NCBI RefSeq assembly: GCF_016801985.1
Contig: NZ_JAEVLS010000005.1
Span: 1-64,000, forward strand
Length of the DNA: 64,000 nucleotides
Origin: Steroidobacter gossypii
GTDB lineage: Bacteria > Pseudomonadota > Gammaproteobacteria > Steroidobacterales > Steroidobacteraceae
Direction: 5' to 3'
Positions 538-22,603 of the stretch are shown here, piece by piece. Numbering within the stretch: position 1 is the stretch's first letter; the number at the start of each line of letters is the position of its first letter. The notes beneath the pieces are model-generated. The model saw nothing but the letters and a program-made list of their open reading frames with translations. It did not search any database and had not been told where the DNA came from. Position numbers and translations under genes: made by a program.

Positions 538-2292
538 CTACGATTCGCTAACAATTGGCAACTGCTGACCGTCGATCGCAAGCACACGCTCAGCATCGGC
601 GAGTGCCGCCTCAACACTCAAGCGGATCTCTCCCGACTGACAGATCACAACAAGCCGGTGGCGAGCACGTGTCCAGGCGACGTACAGATCTGACTTCGTA
701 AAGAGCGGCGCGAAATCGCATACGCCGTAGATCACAACGATATCCGTCTCGAGTCCCTTGAACGCTCGCGCAGTGGTAACGAGAATGCCCGCTCCGCGAC
801 GCCACTCAATTGGATCGTCAATTAACGGTACACCTTCAACCTCCGTGTGACGAGCGAGTGAACTCTTTGCCTGAGCCGCGGGACCAATCAGTGCGATCTG
901 ATGCGGTTCGACGCCCTGCTGCATCAGCTGCCTTACCTCGGCAAGGACCAATCCAGCGTCAGCCGATTGCGATGGTGGACGACGAACAGCAGGAGAATCT
1001 CCTGTAGGTGAGCCAGGGAGGAGGCGCACTTCCACATTCGCGAGCGAGGCGCCACTTCGCGCTATTGCCTTTGTGTTACGGCAATTTGTGCTGAGCTTGA
1101 AGCGCGCCGGAAATTGCACAGGAGGAAGCCTGGATACGGCTCGAAGGCTCTGCTTCAAGTCCAGGAAGGCATAAAGCCTTCCGGGTTGTGCCATTCGACA
1201 CAGCGACTCGATTGAGACCCACCAATCGGGAGCAAAGTCCTGCGCCTCGTCAACAATCACCGCGTCAAACGCCTCCGGTTGTCCACGAGCCTTTAGCACT
1301 TCTACAGCCTGCTCCATGATCAGGGGAACCTCGTTATCCCAGAAGTCCTGCTCTCGTTCATTCGGAACATCGAAGTCCACGCGTGCCCTCTGAGCAAGTA
1401 GGCGGGCGCGTGCATGGAACGTAGAAACATGAAGCAGAGAATTTGCGCCCTGAGCGCGACGATCGTGCTTCGCCTGCTCCTGAAGCCAGGCGCTCAGGTG
1501 GCGGTTGTAGCAAAGCAGCAATACTCGCTCCCCTCGCTCAACGAGTGACAAAGCGAATTCAAGTGCGAGCAAGGTCTTACCTGAGCCGGCGGTTCCCTCG
1601 ACAAGCACGCGCTCATTTTCAAGGAGTCCAAGCAGAGTTTCTCGCTGGTCGAGCGTGATCTGAACGATGCGTTGGTGCTCGGCACGGATCTCCGCGGCGG
1701 CGCAACGCATTAGGCGCAACCTCGGCATTAGAGCCTCGATCAGCTCCGAAAACTGCGAGGTAGTCAGATGTGTTGCCCTATGGGCCCATGCAGTAAAGGC
1801 CTCCTCGATTTTGGTAACCATCGACGGAATTTGAAGCGCATCAATCAGAATTCTCGGGCTGGCATTTGTCGGAAGCATCCCTTTGTAGGTTATGTGCGGA
1901 AAGACAACCACATCACCGTGAGCAAAAAGTCCGCGATGTATTCGCTTTCGAGTGCGCTCCTCAATCGCGTCCAGAAGCGCGTAACGACTGCGCTTCGCCT
2001 GTTCAAAGGGATCGCGTAGCTCCTTTCCTGCTCGGAACCAACTGCGGCCCTTTAGCTCAGGACTCCCGCCTTTGACTTCTAAGATAAGAAGGCCTCGCTC
2101 GGGATGAAGGATGACGAAGTCAGCTTCACCTTCGCGCAACGGCTCAGTCGCAATGTCGCGTTTGGGTCGCAGCCACGGGAAGGAGTGGAGTACGACAAAT
2201 CCTGCTGGCAAGCCTCGCAGTGCGTCATACACGATCCTTTCCGAGTCGTGCGCAATATCTTCCGATCTGACATCCGGAATGAACCGGGCCAT
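538..2292 (-). CDS. NERD-domain UvrD/Rep-like helicase, last gene of the Druantia operon
   Basis: This 584-residue protein has a NERD nuclease-related domain in about the first 90 residues, with the pattern EADFVILHPERGLLILEVKGG (E, D and ExK). A superfamily 1 helicase core follows: Walker A EGTAGSGKT, Walker B VIVDEAQDFAPDWW, and C-terminal motif VI YVAWTRARHRL. NERD proteins fused to UvrD-type helicases are known; the nuclease fold is inferred from the family. The ATG at 2292 overlaps the druE stop by one base (TGATG), which implies translational coupling, so this start is preferred over an upstream in-frame start at 2316. The C-terminus looks complete. It is not one of the five core Druantia genes and is probably an accessory nuclease-helicase of this operon. 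Confidence 0.85.
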   Translation of the reverse strand: MARFIPDVRSEDIAHDSERIVYDALRGLPAGFVVLHSFPWLRPKRDIATEPLREGEADFVILHPERGLLILEVKGGSPELKGRSWFRAGKELRDPFEQAKRSRYALLDAIEERTRKRIHRGLFAHGDVVVFPHITYKGMLPTNASPRILIDALQIPSMVTKIEEAFTAWAHRATHLTTSQFSELIEALMPRLRLMRCAAAEIRAEHQRIVQITLDQRETLLGLLENERVLVEGTAGSGKTLLALEFALSLVERGERVLLLCYNRHLSAWLQEQAKHDRRAQGANSLLHVSTFHARARLLAQRARVDFDVPNEREQDFWDNEVPLIMEQAVEVLKARGQPEAFDAVIVDEAQDFAPDWWVSIESLCRMAQPGRLYAFLDLKQSLRAVSRLPPVQFPARFKLSTNCRNTKAIARSGASLANVEVRLLPGSPTGDSPAVRRPPSQSADAGLVLAEVRQLMQQGVEPHQIALIGPAAQAKSSLARHTEVEGVPLIDDPIEWRRGAGILVTTARAFKGLETDIVVIYGVCDFAPLFTKSDLYVAWTRARHRLVVICQSGEIRLSVEAALADAERVLAIDGQQLPIVSES

Positions 2293-5200
2293 CAGGGCGC
2301 CTCGACCGCATGGCACACAATAGTGGCCGCGAGCGTCAACTCTGCCTGATCAAGCCGCTCTGGCCTGAACTTCTTGTCGACCGCGCTCCCGTAAGAAATC
2401 TGCAACCGTTTCCCGCTGTCTTCGGTAGACAACTCCTTAATGTGCGCTATCGTCCATTCCGCCCCCGTCGCGTTAAATTTTCCGCGCGAACGAAGAACGA
2501 TTACCCATGCGTCGGGCCGTAGATCGGAACTTGAAACTGGACGAACAACGATCCAGCTACCGGCCGCGTATCCCACCTTGTCCAACCCTGGGCTGGGAAC
2601 ACGAACTGCGAAGGCACTACCATCCAGGGAGACGTTCGAGATCAGACGAACCGTACCGTTAGTTGTAGAGGCAGCAGCCCGTCGCAAATCCTTCACCGGC
2701 AAGCTTACGGGGTGACCGTCGATCGGCTGATCGGCCGCCGCATGTCGAGCGGTGCGCGGTGCGCTCGTAAGTCCCGTTGCTATTTGGTAAGCGGACGGAA
2801 GATCTTGTTCAACAAGGTAGTCCGGTAAAAGCATCCTAGGTGCATTCGGTGACGACTTGGTCGGATGATCGATCTCCGCCTGTTCGCATGCAAGGAAAGC
2901 AGGATAGATGCCTACGGTCACCGCCCGTGCTCCACCAGTACAGCGTAGAGCTCCGCTCGCGTCCGTTTCAGTAACCCAGCCTTCGAGTTCGAGAAAGCGT
3001 GCAAGCGGCCGCAACGCGCGAGCTTGGTCATCCGCCGAAGCGAAAGTAGGGGATACACCTGTTCGAAAAAAACGCAGCAACTGCAGTGCCAACCGTCTAT
3101 CGAGTCGTCCGTGTAGAAATCTATTGCCATAGTGACGAAGGCACTTTGTGCAGGAACGCACGCACTTACCTGGGCACTCACGCAATAGTTCTTCAGTCTT
3201 ATCAAGCACACTCTGCAGTTGCTTTCCCGCATCGGCGGCGTAACCCGCTCCACCTGACGCAGTATCGAACAAGTACACCTCGGCGACGCCTTGCTCTCCG
3301 TCCGAAAGCGGAGGAAGGAGTCGATATCCGGCAGATAACTCACCGGGATCAATATCGAGATGCAAGCTCGCTCCAAGCGATAACGCCTCAGCGAATGTCG
3401 CAAGGGCATCGTGCAGCCAAGGCCGATCCGGAATGAAATCGAGCGGCTTGCGAAACACACCTCGGAGCAGCATCAGGTCGGTTCGAAAGTCGTGTACCAG
3501 AAACAGTCCACGTCTCACGTCGCCATTGCACTTGCTTGCGGCTTTGTCACGCTCCAGGATGTGTCGCGGCACGAGAAACGGGCGATCATGCGTGCTGTCA
3601 GGCTCATCGCCATCAATCCACGCAGCTCCGCAGCTCTCGCAGACACTGAAGCCGGCCGCATCCTTTCCCTTGTTCGCGACCACGAGAAGGACGTCTTCGC
3701 CGTAGGCGTGACTGAGGTTTACGCCCGCACCCTGCCTCCAGTCGAACTCATCGCGGCCGGCTATTTCAGGAAGCTGAGCCGAAGAGGCAAAGGTGATGTC
3801 TTGTTCGCGATCACCCTCTCGAAGTGCAGTTCCTTTCTCCGGCGAGAACCCTGGCGGATCAAGATACTCGCGCACGAACAGCGGCGTCTTGCAGACTTGG
3901 CAAGGCGACCCTTCAATTGTCCTGTTAACCGCATTTCCAAGCTCGATCGAAACAAAAGAGCAACGCGGACAACCGACATAGCGGCTCAGTTGCTTTTCGA
4001 ACAGTGCAGTCGCTGGACTGGCTGAAGGGGGCCCATCGATGAAGATTCCGCCGACACGATAAGTCTCCTTCTTTACAACTAGCAGACGCCCTGGAGCGTA
4101 CTCGCTGAGTGCCTGCCCTTTTGCTAGTTGCGGTCGCTCGGCGACGCTTACGCGCCACGGCGATCTGCTCTTATCCCATTGCTGAATCGTGAACGCGCAC
4201 AAGTCTGTTGGGAATGCATAGGAAGGCAAGAGGCTCCGATCGAAGAACAGATCGAGAAGCCCACCGTCCTCATCGTCGCGCGACGCATCATTCGCGTCGT
4301 CCGGCGCAGGCGACTGGGTCCGCCCGTCCCGAATCGCACTCAAATCACGGAGCAGTGAATCTGCGACCTCACGGACAAACTTTCGCCTTTTGTCGGCATC
4401 ATCGTCTCCAAAGATGGCCGGTGGCAACCAACTTGCCACCTCTTCAACTATGCGGCTTCTTGGCGTGAGTACTGCGGTTCTCATCCAGAGATCAAAATCG
4501 GGAAACGAGAACTCGCTCGCACCTTCGAAGAATTCACTGGCCGAGCCAAATGCGCTCATGATGCCAGGTCGACTCGCGGCAATTTTTTCCTGCTCCTCTT
4601 TACTGAGCGCGTCGAGCCGAGAATGGAAGAACGTTTGGAGTAGGTGCGAGTTGACGTGCCGAATCGCGAGTCGAGGATTGTCGGTCTTCAGTCTTGGCTC
4701 ACGCGGCGCACCGCTAATTATCGCCTGCGGGTGCGCAAAGTAGTGTGCGTCATGCGCACCGCCTTGAGCAAACGTTAGAACAGACGACACTGAAGTTCCT
4801 CGCCGTCCCGCACGCCCGGCGCGCTGCTGGTAATTCTCACGCTGGGGAGGGACCGTTCGAAGCCCAACTGCTGAAAGAGAGCCGATATCGATGCCCACTT
4901 CCATTGTGGTCGTACAACTGAGGACGTCCACCGGAGGCTTCTCCGGCCCCAGCGGCACATCTTGGAAACGCAGCTCGAATTCCTCGGTTGTGGCGTACAC
5001 GACGCCTGCATCGCGCTGAGAAAGTTGCGCGGTATGCTCTTCCGCGGTGATGTGGACCGGGCGATCTCCACGCAAAACCGCGCGAAGAGGCTCGCGAAAA
5101 AAGCCCTTTCTGGCGCGCATATACTCGTGCTCTGGCGGCCTCGCCTCTAACCGTTTGAGCCCGCAAACCCCACATGCCTCGAACACTGGCTTCAATTGCA

Positions 5201-8200
5201 AATGGCCGCACACGACGCATTGGAGCCACGTTTCTTCAAGGGCTAAGCGCATTATCACGCCATCGGTCACGACCAAACGCCCGGAATCATCTCCAGCAAT
5301 GGACTCGCGAGTGAATACGTCGAAGAGTTCCTCTCGAAACCGGGCGACATCAGGTAACGACAGCCCTAGGCGCGTGCGGATAGGCTCAAAGAAACGCTTG
5401 TGTCCATCCGCTGGCCGAATAGGATTGAACCAGTGAAACTCATCTAAGCGTCCGTCCTTGCTAAGAGCTGGATCGAAAGCGTAGGCACCGATCATTTCTC
5501 CCAACCAGGCATTCGCCACTTCATCAATGACAGCTGGCGTTGAGATTCCTGCCATCCGCTTATGCAACAATCGAAGCTTTGGCGGCGCCGCTTCGACAAC
5601 CGCAGCACAGGCTGCAACTAGCGAGTAGTAAGGATCTCCGATCTGCCGCAGCAAGGCCGTTCGAAATCGCGTGGGCGGTGTCGGGCGCCAATGATTCGCA
5701 AGAGCTACATCAAGATCGTCATAGTCCTTGCGAAACCGTGATATCTCTTCTAGTAGTGCCTTTTGGTCGGCTCCATCGAAGAAATGAAGATGATAGCGCG
5801 CACAAACGGCAACAAACGCGCCGTATAGCGTCTCGTCGAGAGTTGCCATCTGTGGACTCGGGAGAGTCGACAGAGCATTGCAAGCAAGAGTCAATGCTTC
5901 TCGGAATGAATCGCGCTCCACTTCGCGCGGTAGATCGCGCGCAAGCCGTGCCGCCTTCTGCCGACCATCACTAAACAGCAACGTCTTACGGCCCTCGTTT
6001 GGATGCTTCTCGCTGGCGGCCTTCGTAGCATACTGGGAGACAAACTGCTCACGGACGAGATTTGCGAATGGCTGCTCACCTTTGGTCGCAAGATCCATAA
6101 TCTTCAGTGATGAGCCGCCAGACTGCGTCCGGCGAGTACAGGCTGGGCATGAAGCGAACGTACTCGTGTTGGGAATCTTTTCGGCCGGCGTCGATGCCTG
6201 ATAGCACAGCCGCGTCCCGCGTGTGTCCTGGGTCGTAGTTGGGAGCACGCGTCCCGTCTGCACATCGATCACCATCGGAGCTACTGCGTCATTTTGCTCA
6301 GGATGGGGCTCCTCAAGATACAAATGCAGTTCGTGTAGAGGAGCACCAAAGTCTAGTAGCTTTCCGCCTCGTTCGTGCCACAAGAAGTCGGGGTGGGCGC
6401 TGGTGCCGAAAGCACGTAAGTAAGCCGCTCCGCAGTCTCTATGAGTCAAAAGTTCAAATACGCGCCCTCCACACTCGCACTGGGTCAGCGGTTCTGTATA
6501 TAAACGACCCAATAAGGCTTCTTCCGTTGGAATGCGGCGCACTGTGCAATCTGGATTTATGCATGCATACAGCGGCGGCAATCCGCGAAACAGCAAGTGA
6601 ACGCGAGTTGGCAAGAGCGGCTGCTCCTCCCGACCTCGTTCTGTTCGGCGGGAAAATGTTCCGAGCGCCAAAAGCCCGTCCGTGGCACGCTCCGCGTGTT
6701 CCGGGCTTTCTGGGAACAGCGTTCGCGCGAGTGCTGCGAACTCAGTTGCATTCCCAGATGCTTCCTCGAGAAGCAATTCGAGCGGTCCGAATCCCGTGAG
6801 GCTGCCGCATATATGTTGCCGCGTTGCGAGGCCATTCTTTCCATCGAATGCAGGCGGCTCCTTCCAACCTAGGCGAACAGCAACGTCCCTCAAGTTGGCA
6901 GTGGCTTCTCCAGGGACGAATCCAGCTGCCGCAAGGATTGCCGGGCTGACCACTGCCAAGGCTTTCGCCTCCGTAAAAGTACCCGGACGAGCACCGGACC
7001 TTGCCTCTCGGGTGCCTCTTACGATGGCAAAACTTTTCGCGGCAGCCCTCCCCGTCAGTTCATTCGCAAAGTCTCGGCCCGCCTTTTCCGCTGCCGCACC
7101 AGAGCCCAAACTCGCGCTTGTGAGGATACAGCGAAGCCTTTCGCGCCCTATGCCCAGCCGCGACAGAAGACGCCGAATGAGAAGGCCGACTTCAGCACCG
7201 CCTACGCCACGGTACATATGAGCCTCGTCGAGGATCAACACGAATTGGTTGTCCGGATCGGCACTCAACCAGGCCCTCGTTTGCTCGAACAGCGGGCGCT
7301 CAATAGGTCGTAGCAACATGTACTCGAGCATCGAGTAGTTCGTGATGAGGATGTCAGGCGCCTGCACTTGCATCTCATGACGCGTCAACAGCTCGCGATC
7401 TTGAGGCTGAGTTCGAAAGCGGCGATCCCAGTGGTGTCGCGTCTGTTCCTGCCCAGCGCGCTTTCCGCTCTTCACCAGCACCTTCTCTTCGAGTTCACGT
7501 GCGTAGAAGCGGACCACGTCCTTCGCAGGCCATCTGCCACGGGACTTCAACTCCGCAACTAGCACCTGGTCCTCTGCGTCTGTTGATGTTTGAAGTTGCT
7601 CGTAGTACCCGAGCAGAGTGTCAAGATGACGCTGGTCTTTTGTGCCGGCACGCACACCGGGATAAGGGGTGCGACTGGTGTACATCCCAAAACGCGGACG
7701 CCTTCCCCAGCGCGTCTCCATCAGGTTCGCGAGTCGTTCATCACCGACCAGTCGCCGAAGACGGGCAGTCTGGTCACTGACTAGCGCATTCATTGGATAA
7801 AGGAGCAGTGCGCGAACGCCGTGGCGCTTAAAGGAATCAGGGCGCTCAATGCCCTCCAGTGCGAGCGCACCAAGAATCGAGTAGAGAAACGTTTCAGTCT
7901 TTCCGGAGCCTGTGCCCGTGGCGACAACCAAGTCGTCACCGTCAGATCCTTTCGAAAAGAACTGCTCGATTGCATCGGCTTGATGTCGATATGGTGGATA
8001 GACGCCGATGCTCGGCTTCCAACTCGCCAACTCTTGGAGTAGTTCGACAACCGGCGCGGGAGCGTTCAGACCCGAGAAACTATCAAGGACGGAATACGAT
8101 GGGGTGACCTCAACGTACGGCCTTTGAGAGATGCCGCCGGGCTCTTCCAACAGCATTCGCCGCTCCTCGATCAGAGCGGAGTTGCGAATGTGATATTGAG

Positions 8201-8276: not shown

Positions 8277-8279
8277 GGT

Positions 8280-9317
8280 CTAGTTCTTCTCCGCTGTCGA
8301 GATAATCCTAATTCCTAGGTCTTGCACCATCCTTGTTGCGAGATCCTGATTGCGGGTGATAGTCCATACGCGCTCGTAAGGTCGTTCGTCTGGAATGCTT
8401 AGCGTCCCAATTGCAGCGAGTACCCGACGTTCTGCGCGCGGTAACTCACTAGTAAAGTGCCACTCTGCGCGAGAGCCGATTCTGCAGGTGCGCGCGCGAA
8501 CTTGGTTGTGCGACGAATGATCGAGTGCATACATGAGGCGTCGGACGTCGAGACCTTGGAGGTCACACACTTTTGCTATTCGTCCCCCAGAAGTTTCGAT
8601 CATCCGAAACTCTCTTGCACCATAGATCCGAACGCGCCGGGCAAGCAGCCTGTGTTCATTACGCGGCATTGCATTCGACCAGCGTTTGAATTGAGGAGTG
8701 CCGGCACTCGACGCAGTTGGAACGTAGAACTCAAATGCATCAGTACTCGTGGGCATGAACGACTGCCACTCAAGCGAAGCGATAAGCTCTGCGGCCCACG
8801 CCTCGAGCGTAGATTGAGGTAATCGAGCCCATGAGAATAGGTCTTCTACCGGCAGCAACCCGTTGAGCTGGCTTGGCAGTCCCGAGAAGTGACGATGCGG
8901 TCCGTGATACTCGATGGGATTTTGGAGAGGAGGGAGCGCACTGGTCGGAACGCCGCCAACAAGCAAATAGCCGGCGCCTTCAGGAAGTTTAACAAACCGT
9001 GCTGTAGCGGACGCCCAGTAGCCTCCGGCTAACTCGACAAGGTCACCCGCAACTTCAAGTGTTGAGAGAGCCTCTCTTAGTTCCGCACGAAGAGCCTCAC
9101 TGGTACCTCGTGGTTGTTTCGACAGCAGGCGCCACGCCGGAAGTGCAACACTCAGTATTCTGCCGATGTGAACCGCTTCGGGTGGCTTTGCCAGACTCCA
9201 AATTGTTGCCCGGATTAGCTCGAAGCATGCTTCGAACGGAGGGCATTCCTGATCTAGGCGCAACTCACGCCGGACTGCCTGAGCACCCTGCCGCGGGTCG
9301 TATATTTCCAAGCCCAC
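8280..9317 (-). CDS. druD: DruD-like protein of Druantia type I
   Basis: A 345-residue protein with no domain I can name. It begins with GTG at 9317, sharing one base with the druC stop (TAGTG), and ends three bases before druE. It is assigned by position: in Druantia type I the gene directly before druE is druD, and the length fits a mid-sized protein. The sequence is a mixed alpha/beta soluble protein without signal peptide or membrane segment. The C-terminal third is rich in Arg and His (for example RRLMYALDHSSHNQVRARTC), which would suit nucleic-acid contact, but that is only a guess. Direct sequence evidence for the name is weak; synteny is strong. Confidence 0.7.
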   Translation of the reverse strand: MGLEIYDPRQGAQAVRRELRLDQECPPFEACFELIRATIWSLAKPPEAVHIGRILSVALPAWRLLSKQPRGTSEALRAELREALSTLEVAGDLVELAGGYWASATARFVKLPEGAGYLLVGGVPTSALPPLQNPIEYHGPHRHFSGLPSQLNGLLPVEDLFSWARLPQSTLEAWAAELIASLEWQSFMPTSTDAFEFYVPTASSAGTPQFKRWSNAMPRNEHRLLARRVRIYGAREFRMIETSGGRIAKVCDLQGLDVRRLMYALDHSSHNQVRARTCRIGSRAEWHFTSELPRAERRVLAAIGTLSIPDERPYERVWTITRNQDLATRMVQDLGIRIISTAEKN

Positions 9318-11425
9318 TAGCAGATAGTCCTTCGCAGACGTCGAATAGCAGCTACCGCGGGCTCATTCAGCGTTCCTGCGCCATCGAGTGCGCGCGCCTG
9401 GTCATCAGGGCTGAGTGCCGTAACTACATAGGGGAGAACTAAACCCTGAATGAGATCCTCCATTACCCTTTCGGCAGGGAAGAACCGGGAAAGCGCTGAT
9501 CCGTAGCGTGTAAGCGCAGGCTTCAGATCTTGGCAATCTGGCCATGTGTTGAGAATTTCCTCGATTTCCGCCGTCGGCACATCGCCGAATGTCAAAAGTT
9601 CGCTAGACAGACCCACATCGCCGGCAGCCGATTCCCCCTGAAAGGGGATCGTCGGATCTGGATAAATAGCAACCGCATGGCTCCATACCTGCGGTGAGAC
9701 AGGTACTGTTGTTGCGCCAGCAATGAAGGTCGCTGCTACGCGAATCCCTGGCGTCCTTGAGATACGCATAGGCGCAATCTCGTCCAACTGCAGCATGGGT
9801 ATGACGGACGCTTCGAGCGGAGACCGATTCGCCCCTTCTAATAAAAGTATCGACAGGCCGTCGACCTCTCGATCCGCCCCGGCGATGGCGAAAATTCCGT
9901 TGCCGGAAGCTACGTCAATGTCACGTAGCTGAATGACACTAGGAGATACATGAATCACCGCGATGCGCCCACCGCAGACCGCCTTCGCATACGTACTCAT
10001 CAGCGAGAGCGCAGAGGAACCAAGGGCAACAGGCATTAGGCGAGCAACCACGGCGGCATGCAGTGGCAACATTACAGCTGGGTCAATTCCCGATGCCCGC
10101 GCGGCAGTCGTCAACGCGCGCTGAAGCGAAACCTTGTCTCTCAGCGCCTCACCTCGCCCGCCAGCCGAATGAACGAGAAATGCTCGATCTCGCTCAACAC
10201 CGCTCACGCCGCTCAGATCCTGTGTGCGGGCCACTGCCTTGGCTTGCTCAGCGCTCAGCGCACTAAGCTCAGCCCTGATTTGCTTCGCCCGATTCTCTGC
10301 TGCGTCTGCATCGAGCGCCGCCGCTTCCGCCCTGCCCCGAAGCTCATCAAGTTCTTCTTGGCGGTGTGTCAGTTGTCGTACTGCGCCTTCAGTCTCCGCC
10401 AATGCTTCGTCACGGCGACCTTCAAGAGTCTCAAGCTCCTTTCTCACTGCCTCAAGTTGACGAAGCGCCGCTTCCAATTCGCATGATGTACACGCGCGAG
10501 CGTCAACCATTTTCTGCAAAGCAACTCTCTCTCCCTCAAGTTGCCCTTCGATCTCAGCACGAATGCTGCGCTCGACCTGCGCGCGCATCGTGACATTCAA
10601 CTCCTCGATCCCAGATCTGATCGCCGGATGTTCATAAAGCACGCCGACGAGTTCCGGAGCAAGACCGGCGACCGCTTCTGTGTCCACGCAAAGAGCCAGC
10701 GCGCGTTCGAGGCGATACTTATCGAGTTGCGCCTCTACCCCGATCCCTTGCGCAGCAAGCGCTCTCGCAGCAGCTTCAATCTGCTTCTTTGTCTGCGCGC
10801 CTTCATGACCACCTTGCTTGGCCAAACGGACCGCCGTCTCCAATCCGCGCCGCAGAACAGTCTCGTCCTCGTCCCAGTCCACGTAGCCAGACGGGGTACT
10901 CTCGTCCATACAAACTAGTCGCTCGACTCCATTGATATGGAGGCTGTGCGGGCGACCATGCGTGAACGTCGACACTCGCGCGAGATTGGACCCAGTAAGA
11001 CTAAGCATGCCCATGGGGGACCGAATCATCTCAACAGGTCCCACGAGCACATCTGGTTGGCACCAGACTAACGCACGCAAAGTTCCGACAGGGCCAGTCA
11101 CGTGCACGCCAGCGACGAGCGCAGCCCGGACCTCGACAGGGCCGCCAAGCAGTCGCAGGTCAATGACCTCCATCGCTGGCTTCACATCGATAACCCTAAA
11201 CTCATCTCGTTGGCCCGGATTCGGCTCCGGTCGAAAGCTGATGAGTGCGCCTTGGTTTGCCGCGTGTGAGTTATGCCAGAACACTTGGCCTTGCGATGGA
11301 AACTCCTTAGCCGCGTTGATAGGCCGCCATTCAGGGACTTGGATTTCGACAATTGGCACGACGCCCGCGACGGGATCACCAATCTTGTCTCGCGCCGCCC
11401 ATTGAACTACTCCAATGATTCTCAT
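9317..11425 (-). CDS. druC: DruC-like coiled-coil protein of Druantia type I
   Basis: A 702-residue protein. Roughly residues 280 to 410 form a long heptad-rich coiled coil (ERVALQKMVDARACTSCELE, then repeated LEAVRKELETLEGRR-like heptads) that contains a CTSC pair. The N-terminal 280 residues and the C-terminal 290 residues appear globular; I see no P-loop and no nuclease motif. The start overlaps the druB stop by four bases (ATGA type) and the stop is fused to the druD start, so the genes are translated together. The name rests on gene order and size in the Druantia type I operon. The coiled coil suggests a structural or oligomerising subunit. Confidence 0.7.
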   Translation of the reverse strand: MRIIGVVQWAARDKIGDPVAGVVPIVEIQVPEWRPINAAKEFPSQGQVFWHNSHAANQGALISFRPEPNPGQRDEFRVIDVKPAMEVIDLRLLGGPVEVRAALVAGVHVTGPVGTLRALVWCQPDVLVGPVEMIRSPMGMLSLTGSNLARVSTFTHGRPHSLHINGVERLVCMDESTPSGYVDWDEDETVLRRGLETAVRLAKQGGHEGAQTKKQIEAAARALAAQGIGVEAQLDKYRLERALALCVDTEAVAGLAPELVGVLYEHPAIRSGIEELNVTMRAQVERSIRAEIEGQLEGERVALQKMVDARACTSCELEAALRQLEAVRKELETLEGRRDEALAETEGAVRQLTHRQEELDELRGRAEAAALDADAAENRAKQIRAELSALSAEQAKAVARTQDLSGVSGVERDRAFLVHSAGGRGEALRDKVSLQRALTTAARASGIDPAVMLPLHAAVVARLMPVALGSSALSLMSTYAKAVCGGRIAVIHVSPSVIQLRDIDVASGNGIFAIAGADREVDGLSILLLEGANRSPLEASVIPMLQLDEIAPMRISRTPGIRVAATFIAGATTVPVSPQVWSHAVAIYPDPTIPFQGESAAGDVGLSSELLTFGDVPTAEIEEILNTWPDCQDLKPALTRYGSALSRFFPAERVMEDLIQGLVLPYVVTALSPDDQARALDGAGTLNEPAVAAIRRLRRTIC

Positions 11426-13056
11426 TGTGGCCCGCCATTTGGCTGCCGGCGCCGCCTCAACGCAATTCTAGATTGCACTAATCCGGCGGCACTTACTGGC
11501 TGACAGACCAGCGCGGAAATCAGTCGAGGACGGCCCGACACTGTGTGTACCGCACCTGTAGACACGTCGTTGGTCACATTCAGAACGTGCTCACGCCAAG
11601 CCAATCGATCGTTAGCTTTATGTCGATCACTTACAGACGCTCGCGCTAGCGTGAACTCGACACGCCCGAAGTTTTCTGCGTCTATTTCAATGCGCGATGC
11701 AGACTGGAGACTACGTTGCAAGATTGCAGCAACTTCTCGACCTGACAGGCTGCGTTGGCTTCGCAGTCGGCCTCGCTCCCACAGCACTACGCGCGCCCGG
11801 GCGTTTTCGTGACCAAGGTCTACCTCAACCTCGGGAGGCGCTTTCGAATCAACACGTATGACGTGCGTTGAAGCCCGCCAAGCGTCAAAGCACAGTTTGC
11901 CGAGGCGAACGCGCAGTCGCGGTGTGCGAGCAAGCAACTCTGCAACCGTTGCGTCTCGTGGGCGCGGCGCGAACATCACGCCGATACTTGCGCTTCTTTC
12001 GTCTGCCAGAGAGAGACGGGTCTGCCCCGTAGTGTGCGACGTGATAGCAATGTGGGATAAATCTCCCTCACCACTTCTGACGCTTGCGCCTTGAGAATTT
12101 GAACCGAAGGCAAAGGTGGCGAGCGTCTCCGCATCATTGCTCGGCGCTTCGACCTCGAATACCGCGGAGTCGCCAAGCCAGAAGATGGGCTCACCTCGAT
12201 CACTGTAGGCACGCGGCGGATTGGCAAGTCTCAACCTCCACGGTCGAGAGACAAAATGATGGCCGATCCGAGCCAACCAATTGGACAGGGCGTGATCATA
12301 GTTGTCGGGAAGAGCTATTTCCCAGATCGTCCACGTTAGGCCTCCGCTCGCAATCCGTGCGTGCTCTAGCCTCCCAGTCCGGTCGGGTGGAGCACACCGC
12401 TCCTCGGCGAGCACAAGTATGGTCTCGCCAGCATGGACAGCGGAGTCTGCGACAAGCCTTGTCCACTCTCCCCTACGGAGCCGAAACAAGACGCCGGTAG
12501 CTTGAAGTGGGGGGCACCGAAGATTCCATCGTTCGCTCTTAACGGCGCGTGGCCAGATCCCGATCGGACGCGCTCGGTACTCTTGCAAGCTAGGCGGCAC
12601 GAAGACACGACCGACGCCAACTCCCGGACGTAGATCGAGACCGCTTAGGCGCGAAACAACACCAGCCCCCGTAACGATCTCCACGATTGCGGTCCGGAGA
12701 GCAACGAGGGACTCATCGCCGATGTCGTCTCGCGGAATTTCAGGAACTCTCAGAGCTAAGGCCCAATCTCCATCAAGGTGGTCGAGAATCAGCCCCAACT
12801 CGGCGGGATCATCCTCTACTTGTGTCTCAGCTGCTTTTTCTATGTGCGAGCCGTGACTAGCACCGCCATGACCTGGCACGAAAAGTTCGCACTCTTCAGT
12901 TCCATCGATGCCACGCCAATGTGCGAAGTATTCAAGGTTTGGTCCGCGGCGAAGTTCGACGGGATGTCCACAAGTCGGGCATGTGTAGTCCGCCCAGCGG
13001 ACCGCCTCCGCGGCGTGGACGAGCTTCCCCAGCTTCTTGTTGAAACCGTACTCCAC
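11422..13056 (-). CDS. druB: DruB-like protein with CoiA-type N-terminal zinc finger
   Basis: A 544-residue protein starting with GTG at 13056. The first 50 residues hold TCPTCGHPVELRRG followed by LEYFAHWRG. This Cys-x2-Cys plus Phe-Ala-His pattern is what opens CoiA-family competence proteins. The rest is beta-rich and unrecognised. It sits where druB belongs, between druA and druC, and overlaps druC by four bases. A 258-base gap separates it from the druA stop, the only sizeable gap in the operon, so a second promoter may serve druB onward. The zinc-finger reading is from the visible motif; the DruB name is from synteny. Confidence 0.7.
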   Translation of the reverse strand: MEYGFNKKLGKLVHAAEAVRWADYTCPTCGHPVELRRGPNLEYFAHWRGIDGTEECELFVPGHGGASHGSHIEKAAETQVEDDPAELGLILDHLDGDWALALRVPEIPRDDIGDESLVALRTAIVEIVTGAGVVSRLSGLDLRPGVGVGRVFVPPSLQEYRARPIGIWPRAVKSERWNLRCPPLQATGVLFRLRRGEWTRLVADSAVHAGETILVLAEERCAPPDRTGRLEHARIASGGLTWTIWEIALPDNYDHALSNWLARIGHHFVSRPWRLRLANPPRAYSDRGEPIFWLGDSAVFEVEAPSNDAETLATFAFGSNSQGASVRSGEGDLSHIAITSHTTGQTRLSLADERSASIGVMFAPRPRDATVAELLARTPRLRVRLGKLCFDAWRASTHVIRVDSKAPPEVEVDLGHENARARVVLWERGRLRSQRSLSGREVAAILQRSLQSASRIEIDAENFGRVEFTLARASVSDRHKANDRLAWREHVLNVTNDVSTGAVHTVSGRPRLISALVCQPVSAAGLVQSRIALRRRRQPNGGPQ

Positions 13057-13314
13057 GGCTCTTTATTGTCCTTCGCCATTAGGCGAGCAAGCCGATGCCC
13101 ACTCAACGGTCGATCCAGAAGTTAGAAGGCCAGTCCGCCAAGAGGCTGGCAACCAAAACCGCTCCATTGCTGTCAGAACGCTTTATATTACACAACGCAC
13201 AAATTACACACACCACACCATCAGTCTGGGTAGGGCTGGGTCACACTTCAGAGGCACACAAGTCCTTGGTATTCGCGAACTGATACCTATGTCACGCGAA
13301 GTGCCGTCGAACGC
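13057..13314 (-). promoter_or_regulatory. Intergenic gap inside the Druantia operon, possible internal promoter
   Basis: On the minus strand the 258 bases between druA and druB contain an unusual GT-rich run (about 13190 to 13230) leading into TAATATAAAG near 13180 to 13189. TAATAT or TATAAA could be a -10 box, but no good -35 box sits at the right distance. No ORF of note is present. This is a weak promoter suggestion based mainly on the gap interrupting an otherwise overlapping operon. Confidence 0.3.
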
Positions 13315-15387
13315 TCAGGGCCCGTCAATAAAGAAGTCCTCTTGGCCATTTGAATTCGGCGCAATGACACGAGCGCCATGTGCGATTGGATGGACGAGGG
13401 AATGGCGAGCAACCTGACCGAGGACGTCATCTGAGCGGATCCTGTTGCGCAGCCATCTCTCACGCCACCACTCACTGATCTTTGCCGTTGACGCGCGGCT
13501 ATCGTCTAGAGACATCAAGTAGCGCGGCTTGGAGGCGAGTCCTAACAAAGTCTCGCAAAGATTCCGCACGAGACTGACGCCGTATATGACGCGGGGACGG
13601 TGGTGCCTGAGGAGTAACGAACTAGGCAAGTTGAGCATGTCGAGAGCTTGCCGTACTTTACGAAGCTTCGGACTGCCCCCTTCACCGAAGATGCTATTTA
13701 CACGCTGAGCATCAGCCTGCTGAACCACGTCAACGAGCGCCTGAACAGTCTCATCGGAATAATGAGAGGTACCATACGCCTCAGATCGGCCGAGTTCCTT
13801 GTAGCAGATAACTTCGCCCGGAAGGCCATCGATACGCTCGCAAGGAATTTTGATGCGGTTGTATTGGCTCGAACCGATGCCATACAACGAAGTAGTCCCA
13901 AGAAAGACCAGATTCGCGGGCCGAACAACCGCGCGACCAGCCATTGACGACGCAATCTCACTTTCGGCGCTAGAGTATCTGCGACGGTACTCAACCACCA
14001 CTTCGGGACTCGCAGCCAGCATCGCAACCAACTTCCCTCCGAGCACAGCGTTATATGGCTGCACCGCTCCGCAAACAGCGATATCTGCAACTGCAATCCC
14101 CACTCGATCGCCTTTCGCCTTTTTAAGCACTCGGCGGATCGCATCGCTGCCTTGAGCAGTCTTTGCCAGTCCGGACAACTTATCGCGCGTGGGTCGAGTA
14201 TCGAAAGCCTGCTGAAAAGTCTTGCGCACCCGAAGGTATGTCGCCAGTGCCAATGCCCGTTTGCTTCGAAACAGGTGCGTCCGGGCACGAGTAACCCAGT
14301 AGCCATCGTCAACGATATCGGATCGTTTGCGCCTGTAATCTCTTGAACGCGCGTATCGGTGATGACGACGTCGTTGTGTTGAAGCCTCCTCGATCAGCCG
14401 TTCTATGACTTCCTCAGTAGGGTTTCTCAGGCTTCGAGCCGAGATCACGTTATCCTCTAATAGATCCGCGACATATATCTCATTAATCGCGTCATCAACC
14501 ACGCCGACGAGCCAACGAGCGATTTCAAGCGTGGGGGCAGATCTGATTCTCTCTAGGAACACATCAGGATGCCATCCGATCCACGCGTCGCGCTCGCGTA
14601 TCTGCATTACTGGGCTGTTAAGCGCGCCGATCCCAATAATTGGATGGTTCATCGCTGCACGATCACGCACAAGAAATAGCATTGTGCGCCCTGGAACATT
14701 CGTATACTGATTTGTCCACGTGTGCCTGAAGTACCGCCAGATATCCATGAGACGCAGACCGGTAAACGAGCAGGTAGCTTCTCTTGTATCGACAAACTGA
14801 AGGTATGGATCGATTGCTTCAGCCAAGCATTGCATCCATCCATTCGTCAGATGCGCCCGAGCCTTGTTCAGCTTTTCCGCGAGGTCTCGGCCATCACGCA
14901 TCAGTGAGAAGATTGATACAAACGCGCCGTTGTGTGAACGCGTTCGTTCCATCGATCGAATAAACTTCTGGACTGAGGGTCGAACGAGTTGAGCATCACG
15001 CTTCACCAACTCTTGTTTTCGAATTCGCGCTTTCTCAGCATCTCGATCACTTGTAACAGGCGATGGCGGGCGCACGGCAACGAGATCGCCACGAACCCGA
15101 AGACCCCAACCCTGAATTACGAGATCTGTAAGGACCAAGCCGGACGCGAGCAATGCCTGATTGTCAATTCGCCGCGCGGCCGTGGTTGCCTCGACGAATG
15201 CATCTCGAGCGTCCTCTACTGCGCTCTCGCGAGCGTCGGCGCGCACCGCTCTCGATAGCACGCGTGCATACGAAACAAATGCGTCCCTCGAGTATTTCGA
15301 CTTCAGGTCCGGTTCAATCTTTGTCCAGTCCGATTCCACAGCAATGATCACTTGTCGTTCAAGAAGGCTGCCAACGTGTCGCTCCAC
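13315..15387 (-). CDS. druA: DruA, DUF4338 protein of Druantia type I
   Basis: A 690-residue protein carrying DUF4338. Visible family segments are GRTMLFLVRDRAAMNHPIIG near residues 233 to 252, DAWIGWHP at 267 to 274, ADIAVCGAVQPYNAVLGGK at 434 to 452, and LGTTSLYGIGSSQYNRI at 496 to 512. Near the C-terminus comes VNSIFGEGGSPKLRKVRQAL. DruA with DUF4338 is the signature of Druantia type I. The first 230 residues are helical and less conserved. The GTG start at 15387 lies 40 bases inside the end of the GHKL gene, so the two are translationally linked; a shorter start is possible. The catalytic role of DUF4338 is not established, so none is assigned. Confidence 0.88.
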   Translation of the reverse strand: MERHVGSLLERQVIIAVESDWTKIEPDLKSKYSRDAFVSYARVLSRAVRADARESAVEDARDAFVEATTAARRIDNQALLASGLVLTDLVIQGWGLRVRGDLVAVRPPSPVTSDRDAEKARIRKQELVKRDAQLVRPSVQKFIRSMERTRSHNGAFVSIFSLMRDGRDLAEKLNKARAHLTNGWMQCLAEAIDPYLQFVDTREATCSFTGLRLMDIWRYFRHTWTNQYTNVPGRTMLFLVRDRAAMNHPIIGIGALNSPVMQIRERDAWIGWHPDVFLERIRSAPTLEIARWLVGVVDDAINEIYVADLLEDNVISARSLRNPTEEVIERLIEEASTQRRRHHRYARSRDYRRKRSDIVDDGYWVTRARTHLFRSKRALALATYLRVRKTFQQAFDTRPTRDKLSGLAKTAQGSDAIRRVLKKAKGDRVGIAVADIAVCGAVQPYNAVLGGKLVAMLAASPEVVVEYRRRYSSAESEIASSMAGRAVVRPANLVFLGTTSLYGIGSSQYNRIKIPCERIDGLPGEVICYKELGRSEAYGTSHYSDETVQALVDVVQQADAQRVNSIFGEGGSPKLRKVRQALDMLNLPSSLLLRHHRPRVIYGVSLVRNLCETLLGLASKPRYLMSLDDSRASTAKISEWWRERWLRNRIRSDDVLGQVARHSLVHPIAHGARVIAPNSNGQEDFFIDGP

Positions 15388-16964
15388 TCAAGTCGATGTC
15401 GTGAGAGGGCTCCACTTTTTCCTGTGGCCATAGCCTCAGCTCTTGCAGCAGCGAGAAGAAGCAATTCCAGTTTCGCCCGCAACTGTTGATCATGTGGACT
15501 GTCCACATCTGCCAACGGCTTGTAGATTTCTCGATTGAACGGATGGTCAGGGTTGAGCACCAAAACCAAACGCTCACCGTCATGTGCGTAAGTAAAAAAG
15601 CTCGTGTCTTTCACGGTCGCTTCGATGATGGTATAGCGAGAACGCCCCTCGCCTAAAGCCTGTCGCAAGGCAGGATGTTGCTTGATTAGTTCCTTCATGA
15701 GCGCCGTAGCTCTTTGCTCGGCGTTCTTCGGGAGTCTGCGAAGCAAGTGATCGCGCTCGTTGGCAATTCGTTCCGCCGCAGAAAAGCGTTCTGCTGTCTT
15801 GACCGCCAGATGCGCCTTCCTCGCTCTCGCACTCAGTGCCCGAGCAGTGGCCTCAAGGTCAGGCGTGAGAGCTTCAAGTAGGTGGGACTGTGGTCGCACC
15901 TGCTGCTTCGTGTGGGTGACGCCAAACGCCTCGTCAAGAACCGGGTCAAATTGGATTTCGCAGCGCCACCAGTCATCGTAGTTCTCGCGGTGCTTGCTCC
16001 CCATAAAGAACCAGCCGTAGTCAACCTCGCGACCTCCGCGAACTATCGAAACACCCGCGCCTTTCGACACTCCAATTCTGCGTTTGTCTTCATTGGATAA
16101 CTTGTGCCACTGGTGTACCGGCAACTCAGAGAACCTCACGCGCACCCATCCAGTCTTGCTTGCGTCTGCCGGGTCGGCACGGACCTCGTAGCGCATTTCA
16201 TCTCCAAACAACTGCGCGCCTGATATCTGAGCCTCCGAATGTACGAAGAGGGGATCGATAGGAGTAATGGCATCACCGTTGATCGTGAGACGGAGTCCAT
16301 TCCAGAGGAAATGCCGGAACCGCCGGCCGAGTTCACTTTCGAGTTTTCGAACGATGGTTGAGATCCGTCTTGCATCGAGTCGATCGCACTGAGTCCACTG
16401 AACAATCGTTCCCGAAGGACTTGCGCACGCACCCGGCAGTTTTCTAACAATGCTAGGACGAGGCACCTCCACCATCTCGCATCGGACTATCTCGTCAACA
16501 TCAAGATACGACATGTAGACCTGCGGGGGCGCTGAATTGCTTGCCCTACGAGAACCAGCAATTCCTATCTTTTGGCCTCGCGCGGATTGCCAAGTGAACA
16601 CAGTTACGCGGCGAGCCTGGCTCAACGACGCATTCGGAAGTCCCATTCCATAGCGCCCAAGTCCGCTGCGGTCACCGAACCGTGTGCTTCCACCGAACCT
16701 AAGAGCTTGGCGCAAAGTGAATGGATCCATTCCTGACCCGTTGTCGACTACTGAAACCTCGATGACCTTCGAGTCGTCCTCACCCGCTTTTGCGTTTATG
16801 GAGATGCCAATCCGGTTTGCGCCGGCCTGAATCGAGTTGTCGACAAGCTCTGAGATTGCACTCGCAGTGCCCTTGTAGCCGGAATCTCGTGTCGCCTGGA
16901 TAAACCTGTCGAGAGCGATGATTGAGCACTCATCGTTCCTGACTTTTCTAGCTGTAGTAGTCAT
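15348..16964 (-). CDS. GHKL (MORC/Hsp90-like) ATPase heading the Druantia operon
   Basis: A 538-residue protein whose first 120 residues form a GHKL ATPase: N-box ISELVDNSIQAGA (Glu39, Asn43), G1 box VDNGSGMD at 73 to 80, and G2 box GRYGMGLPNAS at 103 to 113. The next part resembles a ribosomal S5-like domain as in MutL or MORC proteins, and the C-terminal 150 residues are helical. The ATG at 16964 has GAGAAG upstream. The gene's end overlaps druA by 40 bases. It is not among the five core Druantia genes. GHKL ATPases occur repeatedly in defence loci, so an ATP-driven clamp or switch role in this operon is plausible inference. Confidence 0.85.
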   Translation of the reverse strand: MTTTARKVRNDECSIIALDRFIQATRDSGYKGTASAISELVDNSIQAGANRIGISINAKAGEDDSKVIEVSVVDNGSGMDPFTLRQALRFGGSTRFGDRSGLGRYGMGLPNASLSQARRVTVFTWQSARGQKIGIAGSRRASNSAPPQVYMSYLDVDEIVRCEMVEVPRPSIVRKLPGACASPSGTIVQWTQCDRLDARRISTIVRKLESELGRRFRHFLWNGLRLTINGDAITPIDPLFVHSEAQISGAQLFGDEMRYEVRADPADASKTGWVRVRFSELPVHQWHKLSNEDKRRIGVSKGAGVSIVRGGREVDYGWFFMGSKHRENYDDWWRCEIQFDPVLDEAFGVTHTKQQVRPQSHLLEALTPDLEATARALSARARKAHLAVKTAERFSAAERIANERDHLLRRLPKNAEQRATALMKELIKQHPALRQALGEGRSRYTIIEATVKDTSFFTYAHDGERLVLVLNPDHPFNREIYKPLADVDSPHDQQLRAKLELLLLAAARAEAMATGKSGALSRHRLEWSDTLAAFLNDK

Positions 16965-19272: not shown

Positions 19273-20199
19273 TTATCCGAATCTCCTGCAAATGAATTCC
19301 ACAGGCTGCAGCGACAATGCAAACGTCGAACCTGAAGGAACACGCAACCCCGGATACTCTTTCGATGAAACAGTGGTCATTGGACGCTGAGCGATAACTG
19401 CGACCGCGTCACCCTGGCCATTCACAACAGGACCGCCGCTCGCACCCGAATGCATCCCGTTGTCTACGTAAATCAGGTCGCATTCGATTCGAATGTTGGT
19501 CGATGTGCTTTCGGCGATTACTCGTCGAGAGTTTCCAACGACGGCTCGCTTGATCAGAGGTCCTGTCATATCGGCGGCGTATCCTTGTGTCATCGCCGTG
19601 AGAAACTCCGCGGCTCCGGAAGCGCCTCGGTCTAACATACGTTCTACTCCGAAAGCAGTGTCCAGTTCGTCTGAATAGCCTGCACAGAACACCTCTTCTC
19701 CAAGTTGCGGTGGCGTCGTTGACGCGGGAATAAAGGACAATGGTCGCTCCGGAGGAACCCGGGGGATGAGGAGAGCAAGGTCGATCTGCACAGGAGCTTG
19801 AAAGCCGGGGACTTGGATCGTTAAGCCACAGAACCCAACCCGGTACTCAGCTGTCGCTTGGCCAACAAGCTTCACGAGTATTTTGGTGTCAGGACCTGTG
19901 TAGTCACTCTCTCGAATCGGAAACCGACCCGTGACCACATGTGCAGCCGTGATGATTTGACCATCCGCGCGAAAGCAGAAGCCTGTGCCCTGGCTAACTC
20001 GCTCCCCAGCCTCCCACACGGTGATGTAGCCGCACGCTGCAGAAAGCTTCGTATAGAGATCTTTGTACATATGTGGTGACGCTAGCTGCTTGTAGTTCTC
20101 CGACAGCTGGCTGTCGAGAGCAGGCATCTTATCAGGTGAGCGCCAGGCGCCGGTACACACCATAACGTTTGCATATTGCCCAGATGGCCATGCTCTCAT
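19273..20199 (-). CDS. Trypsin-like serine protease, cytoplasmic
   Basis: A 308-residue protein with all three catalytic residues of a chymotrypsin-fold protease: His in ITAAHVV, Asp in IDLALLIP, and Ser in GASGGPVV. A TGFCFRADGQ stretch precedes the His motif as in HtrA-like proteases. There is no PDZ domain and no convincing signal peptide, so it probably acts in the cytoplasm, unlike DegP. The frame is open to a TTG at 20232, but I prefer the ATG at 20199; an ATG at 20127 is also possible, and none has a clear ribosome site. It is the first gene of a three-gene leftward set with the 139- and 250-residue proteins. Trypsin-like domains are known parts of bacterial conflict systems. Confidence 0.8.
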   Translation of the reverse strand: MRAWPSGQYANVMVCTGAWRSPDKMPALDSQLSENYKQLASPHMYKDLYTKLSAACGYITVWEAGERVSQGTGFCFRADGQIITAAHVVTGRFPIRESDYTGPDTKILVKLVGQATAEYRVGFCGLTIQVPGFQAPVQIDLALLIPRVPPERPLSFIPASTTPPQLGEEVFCAGYSDELDTAFGVERMLDRGASGAAEFLTAMTQGYAADMTGPLIKRAVVGNSRRVIAESTSTNIRIECDLIYVDNGMHSGASGGPVVNGQGDAVAVIAQRPMTTVSSKEYPGLRVPSGSTFALSLQPVEFICRRFG

Positions 20200-20247
20200 G
20201 GGGTGGACGACAGCAAACCCGCGGCCGCGCAATCAACCCGTACTAAG

Positions 20248-22516: not shown

Positions 22517-22532
22517 AAGCCACCTCGCTCCT

Positions 22533-22603
22533 GGGGTGTCACTCCAAATTCGTGGGTGCCAGCCCCAAAATCGCGGTTTCTCAACGTCGCTCCGGGGTGC
22601 CAC
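22533..22603. repeat. Three short direct repeats upstream of the integrase
   Basis: GGGGTGTCAC at 22533 to 22542, GGGTGCCAG at 22554 to 22562, and GGGGTGCCAC at 22594 to 22603 lie within 90 bases of the integrase start, all in the same direction. Tyrosine integrases bind short arm-type repeats near their own gene, so these could be arm sites or an operator. No core attachment site could be identified. Confidence 0.4.

What the first reader, a model, noticed from the sequence alone, without database searches (positions are those of the whole stretch)
538..16964. Druantia type I system with two extra coupled genes
The five core genes druA to druE are in canonical order and overlap or nearly touch, apart from one gap. 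A GHKL ATPase gene overlaps druA at the 5' end and a NERD-UvrD helicase gene overlaps druE at the 3' end. The two extra genes add an ATP-driven clamp-like protein and a nuclease-helicase. They may define a variant of Druantia whose parts have not been tested together.
Basis: partly seen in the sequence, partly recalled or inferred. Interest (0 to 1): 0.8.

Follow-up and report, generated by a model that had tools for sequence, protein, structure and literature searches.

The report
Modular Druantia defence system with nuclease
This is a seven-gene bacterial defence operon of the Druantia type I kind in which one "extra" gene turns out to be a near-constant partner of the long DruA protein, and the other is one of several alternative DNA-cutting enzymes found right after the DruE helicase.

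Summary
The seven genes are real. Profiles place DruA, DruB, DruD and DruE; DruC rests on position and coiled coil only. The two flanking genes are not chance neighbours. GHKL abuts or overlaps the 5' end of druA in 79 of the 80 returned loci most like the window's (78 by the script's rule), and its pairwise identities track DruA (r 0.96) more than DruE tracks DruA (0.72). The two E. coli Druantia I loci I opened have a 404-aa DruA and neither extra gene. NERD-UvrD directly follows DruE in 12 systems (window, 9 of 80 genome loci, 2 plasmids); in other loci a Cas4/RecB-like gene (34) or DUF4365 gene (7) sits there, never two kinds. Of 70 DruEs, 13 share a C-terminal extension, 12 of them with NERD; none of 57 without it has NERD.

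DruA/GHKL and DruE trees disagree: the window joins a GHKL-DruA cassette to an E. coli-like B-C-D-E cassette. GHKL-DruA also occurs beside SspFGH/DndFGH-like genes. Verdict: a modular type I variant; no report of it in the papers searched. Mechanism (inferred): GHKL-DruA senses or licenses, DruE translocates, NERD-UvrD cuts.

The parts
15348..16964 (-). GHKL ATPase (538 aa), MORC/MutL/Topo VI-B-like; near-constant partner of long DruA
   Evidence: HATPase_c_3 E 3.9e-21, partial MzaB match; E39, D42, N43, D74, G76, G78, G103, G106, G108, G185 invariant in 54 sequences; AF2 pLDDT 89.7, best PDB matches MORC2/3, Hsp90, Topo VI-B, MutL
13315..15387 (-). DruA, long form (690 aa from GTG 15387, or 678 aa from GTG 15351), DUF4338
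   Evidence: PADLOC DruA1 E 1.4e-199; PF14236; AF2 pLDDT 90.3 with no PDB fold match at E <= 0.001; a paper calls DUF4338 a GNAT domain (passage)
13057..13314 (-). 258-bp gap between druA and druB, where L014, L015, L024 have a 349-415 aa gene of unknown family
   Evidence: no hit for the L014 gene in Pfam, PADLOC or NCBIfam
11422..13056 (-). DruB (544 aa), CoiA_N-like N-terminus (below Pfam's cut-off)
   Evidence: PADLOC DruB1 E 5.6e-17; hhalign to E. coli DruB probability 97.3% over 236 columns
9317..11425 (-). putative DruC (702 aa), coiled coil; by position only
   Evidence: no DruC profile hit, weak coiled-coil-type hits; hhalign to E. coli DruC 4%
8280..9317 (-). DruD (345 aa)
   Evidence: PADLOC DruD1 E 5.5e-15
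2292..8276 (-). DruE (1994 aa), YprA-family helicase with MZB domain
   Evidence: PADLOC DruE1 E 0, 1849 bits; DEAD, Helicase_C, MZB
2295..2948 (-). C-terminal extension of DruE (residues about 1777-1994) beyond the 1776-position DruE1 model
   Evidence: present in 13 of 70 DruEs, 12 of them followed by NERD; none of the other 57 has NERD
538..2292 (-). NERD nuclease - SF1 helicase (584 aa from ATG 2292; 592 aa if GTG 2316)
   Evidence: PADLOC RTasNERD-Hel 6e-48, C3a187 NERD+UvrD 1.2e-30; NERD PF08378 1.3e-8; D66, E80, K82, G244-T248, D356, E357, Q359 invariant in 13 homologues, 12 of them DruE-linked
2290..2294 (-). TGATG stop-start overlap of DruE and NERD

Best explanation
A modular variant of Druantia type I built from three exchangeable parts. 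(1) A GHKL-DruA cassette: a MORC/MutL-like ATPase that probably closes on DNA as an ATP-gated dimer, together with the DUF4338 protein DruA; I infer that it senses or licenses target DNA. (2) A DruB-C-D-E cassette in which DruE, a YprA-family helicase, loads on and moves along the flagged DNA. (3) A nuclease in the slot after DruE, here NERD-UvrD, that cuts and unwinds the DNA and is probably held by DruE's C-terminal extension. Shown here: composition, order, recurrence of the pairings, exchange of parts, conserved nucleotide-site and nuclease residues. Inferred: every biochemical step and the sensing role.
For: GHKL next to DruA in 79 of 80 loci. Pairwise identities: DruA-GHKL r 0.964 (2016 pairs, 64 systems), DruA-DruE 0.72 and GHKL-DruE 0.68 (1953 pairs, 63 systems each). 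Exchange: window v. L010-L012 GHKL 74-75%, DruA 65-67%, DruE 33-34%; window v. L014, L015, L024 73%, 66-67%, 75-76%; DruA and GHKL trees group the window with L010-L012, L014, L015 and L024 (100*), the DruE tree with L014, L015, L024, then L078, then E. coli and P. putida (96*). Nuclease slot: 34 Cas4/RecB-like, 9 NERD, 7 DUF4365 of 63 loci with DruE, never two kinds. DruE extension: NERD in 12 of 13 with it, 0 of 57 without. PMC12458937 (passage) predicts that type I DruE's own Vsr nuclease domain is inactive, which fits a nuclease in trans. Fold likeness of GHKL to MORC, Topo VI-B and MutL.
Against: No functional test exists. 13 of 63 DruE loci show no recognised nuclease there (several at contig ends, but L053, L055, L058, L062 and L063 have no recognised nuclease between DruE and DruA), and the two E. 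coli loci opened have neither GHKL nor nuclease, so neither is needed in every type I system. The 80 loci are the best of 218 by likeness to the window's DruA, which favours GHKL; long DruA without GHKL exists (L005, L006, L009, L089, L093-L095, L124, L125). L088's genome has a DruE with the extension but no NERD at E <= 1e-10. The extension is only 17-24% identical between the two NERD groups. Some of the 57 DruEs without extension are cut at contig ends. Identity correlations are not corrected for shared descent. GHKL TM-scores are only 0.35-0.47 on the query in the rows shown.
Confidence: 0.6

Rival explanations
1. GHKL and NERD are separate single-purpose defence genes that only travel with Druantia in islands; the Druantia part works alone as in E. 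coli.
For: E. coli Druantia I lacks both; GHKL relatives occur on 54 plasmid records, most of them not among the 11 records with a DruA match, and NERD-helicase relatives on 54; PADLOC lists NERD-helicases with other systems.
Against: 79 of 80 adjacency and r 0.964 for GHKL-DruA; NERD immediately after DruE in 12 systems, with stop-start overlap in the window; NERD tied to a DruE extension.
Confidence: 0.2
2. GHKL-DruA is the whole core of an independent system and DruE modules are one of several accessories.
For: GHKL-DruA without DruE in the genome at E <= 1e-40 in 13 of 40 searched genomes or records (14 had no DruE; one of these, L089's, lacks the adjacent GHKL); L023 has GHKL-DruA facing SspH/G/F-like genes; two GHKL genes in 10 of 80 loci.
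Against: 63 of 80 loci have DruE in the locus or on a stretch of the same genome taken as its continuation; many DruE-less ones are MAGs or short contigs; E. coli DruB-E has a DruA without GHKL.
Confidence: 0.15
3. A decayed or chimeric locus that is no longer functional in this genome.
For: The locus sits at a contig end in a low-GC island, and the gene found after DruA in its nearest relatives is missing.
Against: All seven frames are open, with conserved nucleotide-site and nuclease residues and tight couplings; the missing gene is absent from most loci (in 7 of 93 gene maps; a later HMM search added L013, a fragment in L017, and L114).
Confidence: 0.05

Closest known systems
Druantia type I (druABCDE) of E. 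coli
   Same: DruA, DruB, DruD, DruE homologues in the same order; DruE 41% identical and, with P. putida, the nearest group after Myxococcota and L078 in the DruE tree
   Different: E. coli DruA is 404 aa, 30% identical; no GHKL and no NERD in the two loci opened; DruE lacks the C-terminal extension
Other long-DruA loci with GHKL and a Cas4/RecB-like or DUF4365 nuclease
   Same: GHKL-DruA cassette and DruE followed by a nuclease gene. PADLOC already holds a nuclease family named DruK, which the Cas4/RecB-like protein of L025 matches weakly (1.1e-9)
   Different: Different nuclease; DruB and DruC not recognisable, a ~1000-aa protein instead
MZA system (MzaB GHKL protein)
   Same: GHKL domain: NCBIfam MzaB 76.6 bits, far below its cut-off of 850
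   Different: None of the other six proteins matches an Mza model
NERD-helicases of other systems (RT-associated, PADLOC C3a187)
   Same: Architecture and sequence of the NERD-helicase, E 6e-48 and 1.2e-30. NERD is also listed for Mokosh type I and Nhi-like systems (PMC10952713, passage)
   Different: No reverse transcriptase among the 17 proteins of window 538-24477 scanned by Pfam; here the gene follows DruE
SspFGH / DndFGH restriction modules
   Same: Long DruA occurs beside, or in L006 in one frame with, SspF-like proteins in other genomes
   Different: None of the window's seven proteins matches Ssp or Dnd models
TALON (YprA-like helicase with NERD nuclease)
   Same: A YprA-family helicase with a NERD nuclease (PMC12458937, section 5)
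   Different: No TPR-cold-shock or TBP protein among the 17 proteins scanned; here DruE is of the type I model

Membership tests
Druantia type I | DruA with DUF4338 | tested here: met
   PADLOC DruA1 E 1.4e-199; PF14236 3.7e-30
Druantia type I | DruB | tested here: met
   PADLOC 5.6e-17 over the N-terminal 105 residues; hhalign 97.3%
Druantia type I | DruC | tested here: inconclusive
   no profile hit; hhalign 4%; position and coiled coil only
Druantia type I | DruD | tested here: met
   PADLOC 5.5e-15
Druantia type I | DruE of the type I clade | tested here: met
   DruE1 E 0, 1849 bits against 655 for the next model
Druantia type I | gene order A-B-C-D-E on one strand | tested here: met
   same order as E. 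coli L096, L097
Druantia type I | protection against phage | not testable with these tools
   no experiment
E. coli-like subgroup of Druantia type I | short DruA (about 400 aa) without GHKL | tested here: not met
   690 aa with GHKL
MZA | MzaB with the other Mza genes | tested here: not met
   only a partial MzaB match
RT-associated NERD-helicase system | reverse transcriptase partner | tested here: not met
   no RT domain in 17 scanned proteins
TALON | NERD with TPR-CSD and TBP genes | tested here: not met
   no such domain in 17 scanned proteins
SspFGH/DndFGH | F, G and H proteins | tested here: not met
   no Ssp/Dnd match among the seven

The most novel reading that the evidence does not exclude
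GHKL-DruA is a portable recognition (or DNA-marking) module shared by two families of restriction machinery: it drives DruBCDE plus a swappable nuclease in Druantia type I, and SspFGH/DndFGH-like translocase-nucleases elsewhere. DruA, a GNAT-fold protein if PMC10853773 is right, would act on DNA or on a DNA-bound partner loaded by the MORC-like GHKL clamp, so that Druantia type I would be a mark- or structure-dependent restriction system with separable recognition and cutting cassettes.
Probability: 0.15. Interest if true: 0.88.

Novelty: new variant of a known kind. Interest (0 to 1): 0.62.

Why it matters
The papers I saw explain Druantia type III, not type I. The long-DruA branch gives DruA an ATPase partner of a well-studied fold and suggests that cutting is left to an interchangeable nuclease after DruE. 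That turns 'what do DruA to DruE do' into direct tests: GHKL with DruA, DruE's tail with NERD, nuclease swaps. It also warns that a type I locus may be cloned incomplete: no PADLOC Dru model matched the GHKL or NERD protein.

Tried and rejected
Considered and dropped: the window as an MZA, RT-associated or TALON locus (partner genes not found). The idea that the ~1000-aa protein after DruA in most loci is a DruB-DruC fusion: hhalign gave 86% with DruB over 155 columns and 0.1% with DruC, so left open. Fold of DruA: no PDB match at E <= 0.001; the few ~70-residue matches to MYST acetyltransferases (E 2.5 and worse) are not evidence alone. A remnant of the missing gene in the DruA-DruB gap: best tblastn E 0.06. 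Promoters and terminators: no more than in shuffles (3 v. 6.1; 18 v. 17.0). tRNA and Rfam (gathering) scans of the window: nothing. One search, meant as a further sample, returned the same six genomes as besides L010's own, so it is not counted; it suggests that the window's organism is in the phylum of L010's genome (Halotalea, Pseudomonadota). A paper search for DruK gave 387 papers, the 10 listed unrelated.

Rows dropped before counts: sequences too short for an alignment (DruA under 240, GHKL under 300, DruE under 1300 aa) and the duplicate L097; in trees, near-identical rows (32 DruE, 55 DruA and 48 GHKL rows kept). The 80 loci are the best of 218; 138 were not returned. Trees are quick LG+G4 trees with SH-aLRT support only. 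In one search the adjacency rule gave 78 of 80; L047 was added by eye because its DruA frame is open far into the GHKL gene; L089 has none; L054's GHKL is cut by the contig end and L084's is of the divergent second kind. For L011, L015, L020, L022, L064 and L088 the DruE counted lies on another contig of the same genome; L088's has its own second DruA, so it may be a separate locus. Of 11 plasmid records with DruA I opened 6. The 12 NERD systems include L020, seen in pieces on contig ends.
Full report
The observation. Seven open frames lie on the - strand at the stated places. PADLOC and Pfam models place DruA (1.4e-199; PF14236 3.7e-30), DruB (5.6e-17), DruD (5.5e-15) and DruE (E 0), the GHKL protein (HATPase_c_3 3.9e-21) and the NERD-helicase (RTasNERD-Hel 6e-48; NERD 1.3e-8). 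DruC has no profile support; position and coiled coil are all there is. DruE's TGA and NERD's likely ATG share a base (TGATG), and DruA overlaps the GHKL gene by 40 bases or, from a later GTG, by 4. The operon lies in a stretch of lower GC (0.54-0.60 over the first 26 kb, 0.61-0.64 after) with a tyrosine recombinase gene at 21170-22744.

GHKL belongs with this DruA. A scan of the species-genome collection with a DruA alignment gave 218 relatives, of which the best 80 were returned. In 79 of 80 a GHKL gene abuts or overlaps the 5' end of druA (78 by the script's distance rule, L047 added by inspection; the exception is L089). Because the 80 were ranked by likeness to the window's DruA, I also sampled genomes with PADLOC's DruA1 model: of 398 genomes of the window's phylum 7 matched, window included, and of 396 of the phylum of L026's genome 6 matched, L026's included. 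DruA of 655-710 aa had GHKL in 5 of 5 of these, but only one of the five, L123, was new (the others are the window and the genomes of L026, L031 and L044); very long DruA (frames of 1077 and 1297 aa) had it in 0 of 2, short DruA in 1 of 6. With five short-DruA loci from E. coli (two), P. putida, Nitrosococcus and Meiothermus and L002, short DruA has GHKL in 1 of 12; one of the 12, L132, shows under 210 bases upstream. Of 11 plasmid records with a DruA match I opened 6: GHKL adjoins DruA in L004, L007 and L008, not in L005, L006 and L009. Viral contigs L093-L095 lack it too. So GHKL marks one branch of DruA, not all. The DruA tree (55 rows) needs 3 changes of the no-GHKL label against 10.3 in shuffles.

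The two travel together. Pairwise identities correlate at 0.964 for DruA-GHKL (2016 pairs of 64 systems), 0.72 for DruA-DruE and 0.68 for GHKL-DruE (1953 pairs of 63 systems) (not corrected for shared descent). GHKL's putative nucleotide-site residues are invariant in 54 sequences; reading them as N box, G1, G2 and G3 is from memory. Its predicted fold (pLDDT 89.7) is nearest to MORC2/MORC3, Hsp90, topoisomerase VI-B and MutL: Foldseek E 1.7e-12, 1.9e-12, 1.4e-10 and 1.1e-9 for the best of each, TM 0.35-0.47 on the query in the rows shown. Sequence profiles agree (MORC2 1.8e-12, MutL 9.5e-9). That such proteins are ATP-gated dimers on DNA is recalled; hence the clamp inference.

DruA. AlphaFold2 gives a confident model (pLDDT 90.3) but no PDB match at E <= 0.001. 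PMC10853773 (passages seen) calls DUF4338 a GNAT acetyltransferase domain, there fused to DndF. I have no independent proof of that fold.

Parts are exchanged. The window's GHKL and DruA are 74-75% and 65-67% identical to L010-L012 (Halotalea, Allochromatium, Desulfobulbus), whose DruE is only 33-34% identical; L014, L015 and L024 (Myxococcus, Polyangiaceae, Corallococcus) show 73%, 66-67% and 75-76%. In the GHKL and DruA trees the window, L010-L012, L014, L015 and L024 are one group (100*; L013 too in the DruA tree); in the DruE tree the window goes with L014, L015, L024 (100*), then L078 (100*), then E. coli and P. putida (96*), away from L010-L012. L003 and L018 are close in GHKL and DruA but have different downstream genes and DruEs of different groups. 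In many Actinomycetota loci, and in L016-L020, the GHKL-DruA and DruE genes face each other tail to tail. The window is thus best read as a hybrid of a widespread GHKL-DruA cassette and an E. coli-like B-C-D-E cassette.

The nuclease slot. Of the 80 loci, 63 show DruE in the locus or on a stretch of the same genome taken as its continuation (for L011, L015, L020, L022, L064 and L088 another contig). Its 3' neighbour is a PD-(D/E)XK gene of the Cas4/RecB kind in 34 (L025's: PF12705 1.5e-19, PADLOC DruK 1.1e-9), NERD in 9, DUF4365 (PADLOC PDC-M02A) in 7, and none or unseen in 13; no locus has two kinds. With plasmids L004 and L008 and the window, NERD directly follows DruE in 12 systems. A whole-genome search with NERD in the 79 genomes behind the 80 loci matched 19 at E <= 1e-10 (15 of 40 and 4 of 39); those beyond the 9 are weaker and not shown to be linked. 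NERD goes with a DruE C-terminal extension: of 70 DruEs over 900 aa, 12 of 13 with it, 0 of 57 without it (some cut at contig ends). The extension of the window matches those of L016, L019 and L018 at 1.4e-6 to 5e-4, and the two NERD groups lie apart in the DruE tree, where the label needs 4 changes. NERD is 42-46% identical between the window and L016-L021, more than DruE (31-32%; no value for L020), as if NERD moved on its own or with the extension.

Other partners. L023 has GHKL-DruA facing genes that match DndH (6.3e-31), SspG (6.6e-16) and, weakly, SspF (2.7e-6), and no DruE in its genome at E <= 1e-40; L030, L082 and, weakly (84 bits), a second contig of L088's genome also carry SspH-like genes. 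In L006 DruA and an SspF-like part (9e-8) are one frame. Fourteen of 40 genomes or records searched had no DruE at that cut-off. Ten of 80 loci have two GHKL genes.

Mechanism. PMC12458937 (outline, abstract, section 5 and passages) predicts that type I DruE has an inactive Vsr domain. PMC13192584 (passages) reports that type III DruE engages ssDNA-containing intermediates and cuts DNA, and argues that subtype-specific partners set how DruE is activated. PMC13316683 (passages) concerns type III only in what I saw. Put together: GHKL-DruA senses or licenses, DruE moves, and the slot nuclease cuts. Only the genomic pairings are shown here; the rest is inference.

What is in print. Searches for Druantia (47 papers, 40 listed), Druantia/GHKL/NERD, dru gene names, MzaB/GHKL, DUF4338, GHKL with defense island, NERD with UvrD and MutL, and DruK gave no listing or passage that reports GHKL or NERD with type I Druantia. 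Of the papers that hold both Druantia and NERD, PMC12458937 has no GHKL and its NERD passage concerns TALON, and PMC10952713 lists NERD for Mokosh type I and Nhi-like systems (passages). PMC8565338 (passages) defines type IV by DruL. PMC7251935 (passages) lists type I as druA to druE. Supplementary files and subscription papers, including the original Druantia paper (recalled, not read), were not seen, so this is not proof of novelty.

Noticed in passing
L006:10680-14285, L093:9863-13435, L094:9668-13273: DruA frames of about 1200 aa; in L006 the C-terminal part matches SspF, linking DUF4338 to SspFGH/DndFGH-like systems.
   Followed up: partly
L023:571-12081: GHKL-DruA tail to tail with SspH-G-F-like genes and no DruE found in the genome at E <= 1e-40.
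   Followed up: partly
L036, L066, L071-L074, L077, L080, L081, L085: Two GHKL genes in the DruA locus; the second kind is longer (about 610-710 aa) and more divergent.
   Followed up: no
L014:8282-9421, L015:11854-13098, L024:8739-9785, also L020, L030, L054, L082 (by HMM also L013, L114): Unknown gene of about 350-425 aa directly after DruA; no Pfam, PADLOC or NCBIfam hit for L014's.
   Followed up: partly
L134:3-2178: A short DruA (399 aa) with a GHKL gene upstream, the only such case seen among 12 short-DruA loci.
   Followed up: no
L002: A genome of the window's own genus carries a different layout, DruE - short DruA (401 aa) - DruB, without GHKL between.
   Followed up: no
window 23893-25502: PADLOC candidate PDC-S24 (with a SoFic match) is split over two frames that overlap by 4 bases.
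   Followed up: no
window 19273-20232: Trypsin-like protease gene (319 aa) with a match to RT-Protease_XI (1.6e-10), upstream of the operon.
   Followed up: no
window 21170-22744 and 1-26000: Tyrosine recombinase gene and GC 0.54-0.60 against 0.61-0.64 beyond: likely a mobile island.
   Followed up: partly
L073:11713-13140: A protein matching PADLOC Aga_TIR-PNTD1-PNTD2 (E 1e-124) directly after a GHKL-GHKL-DruA cassette.
   Followed up: no
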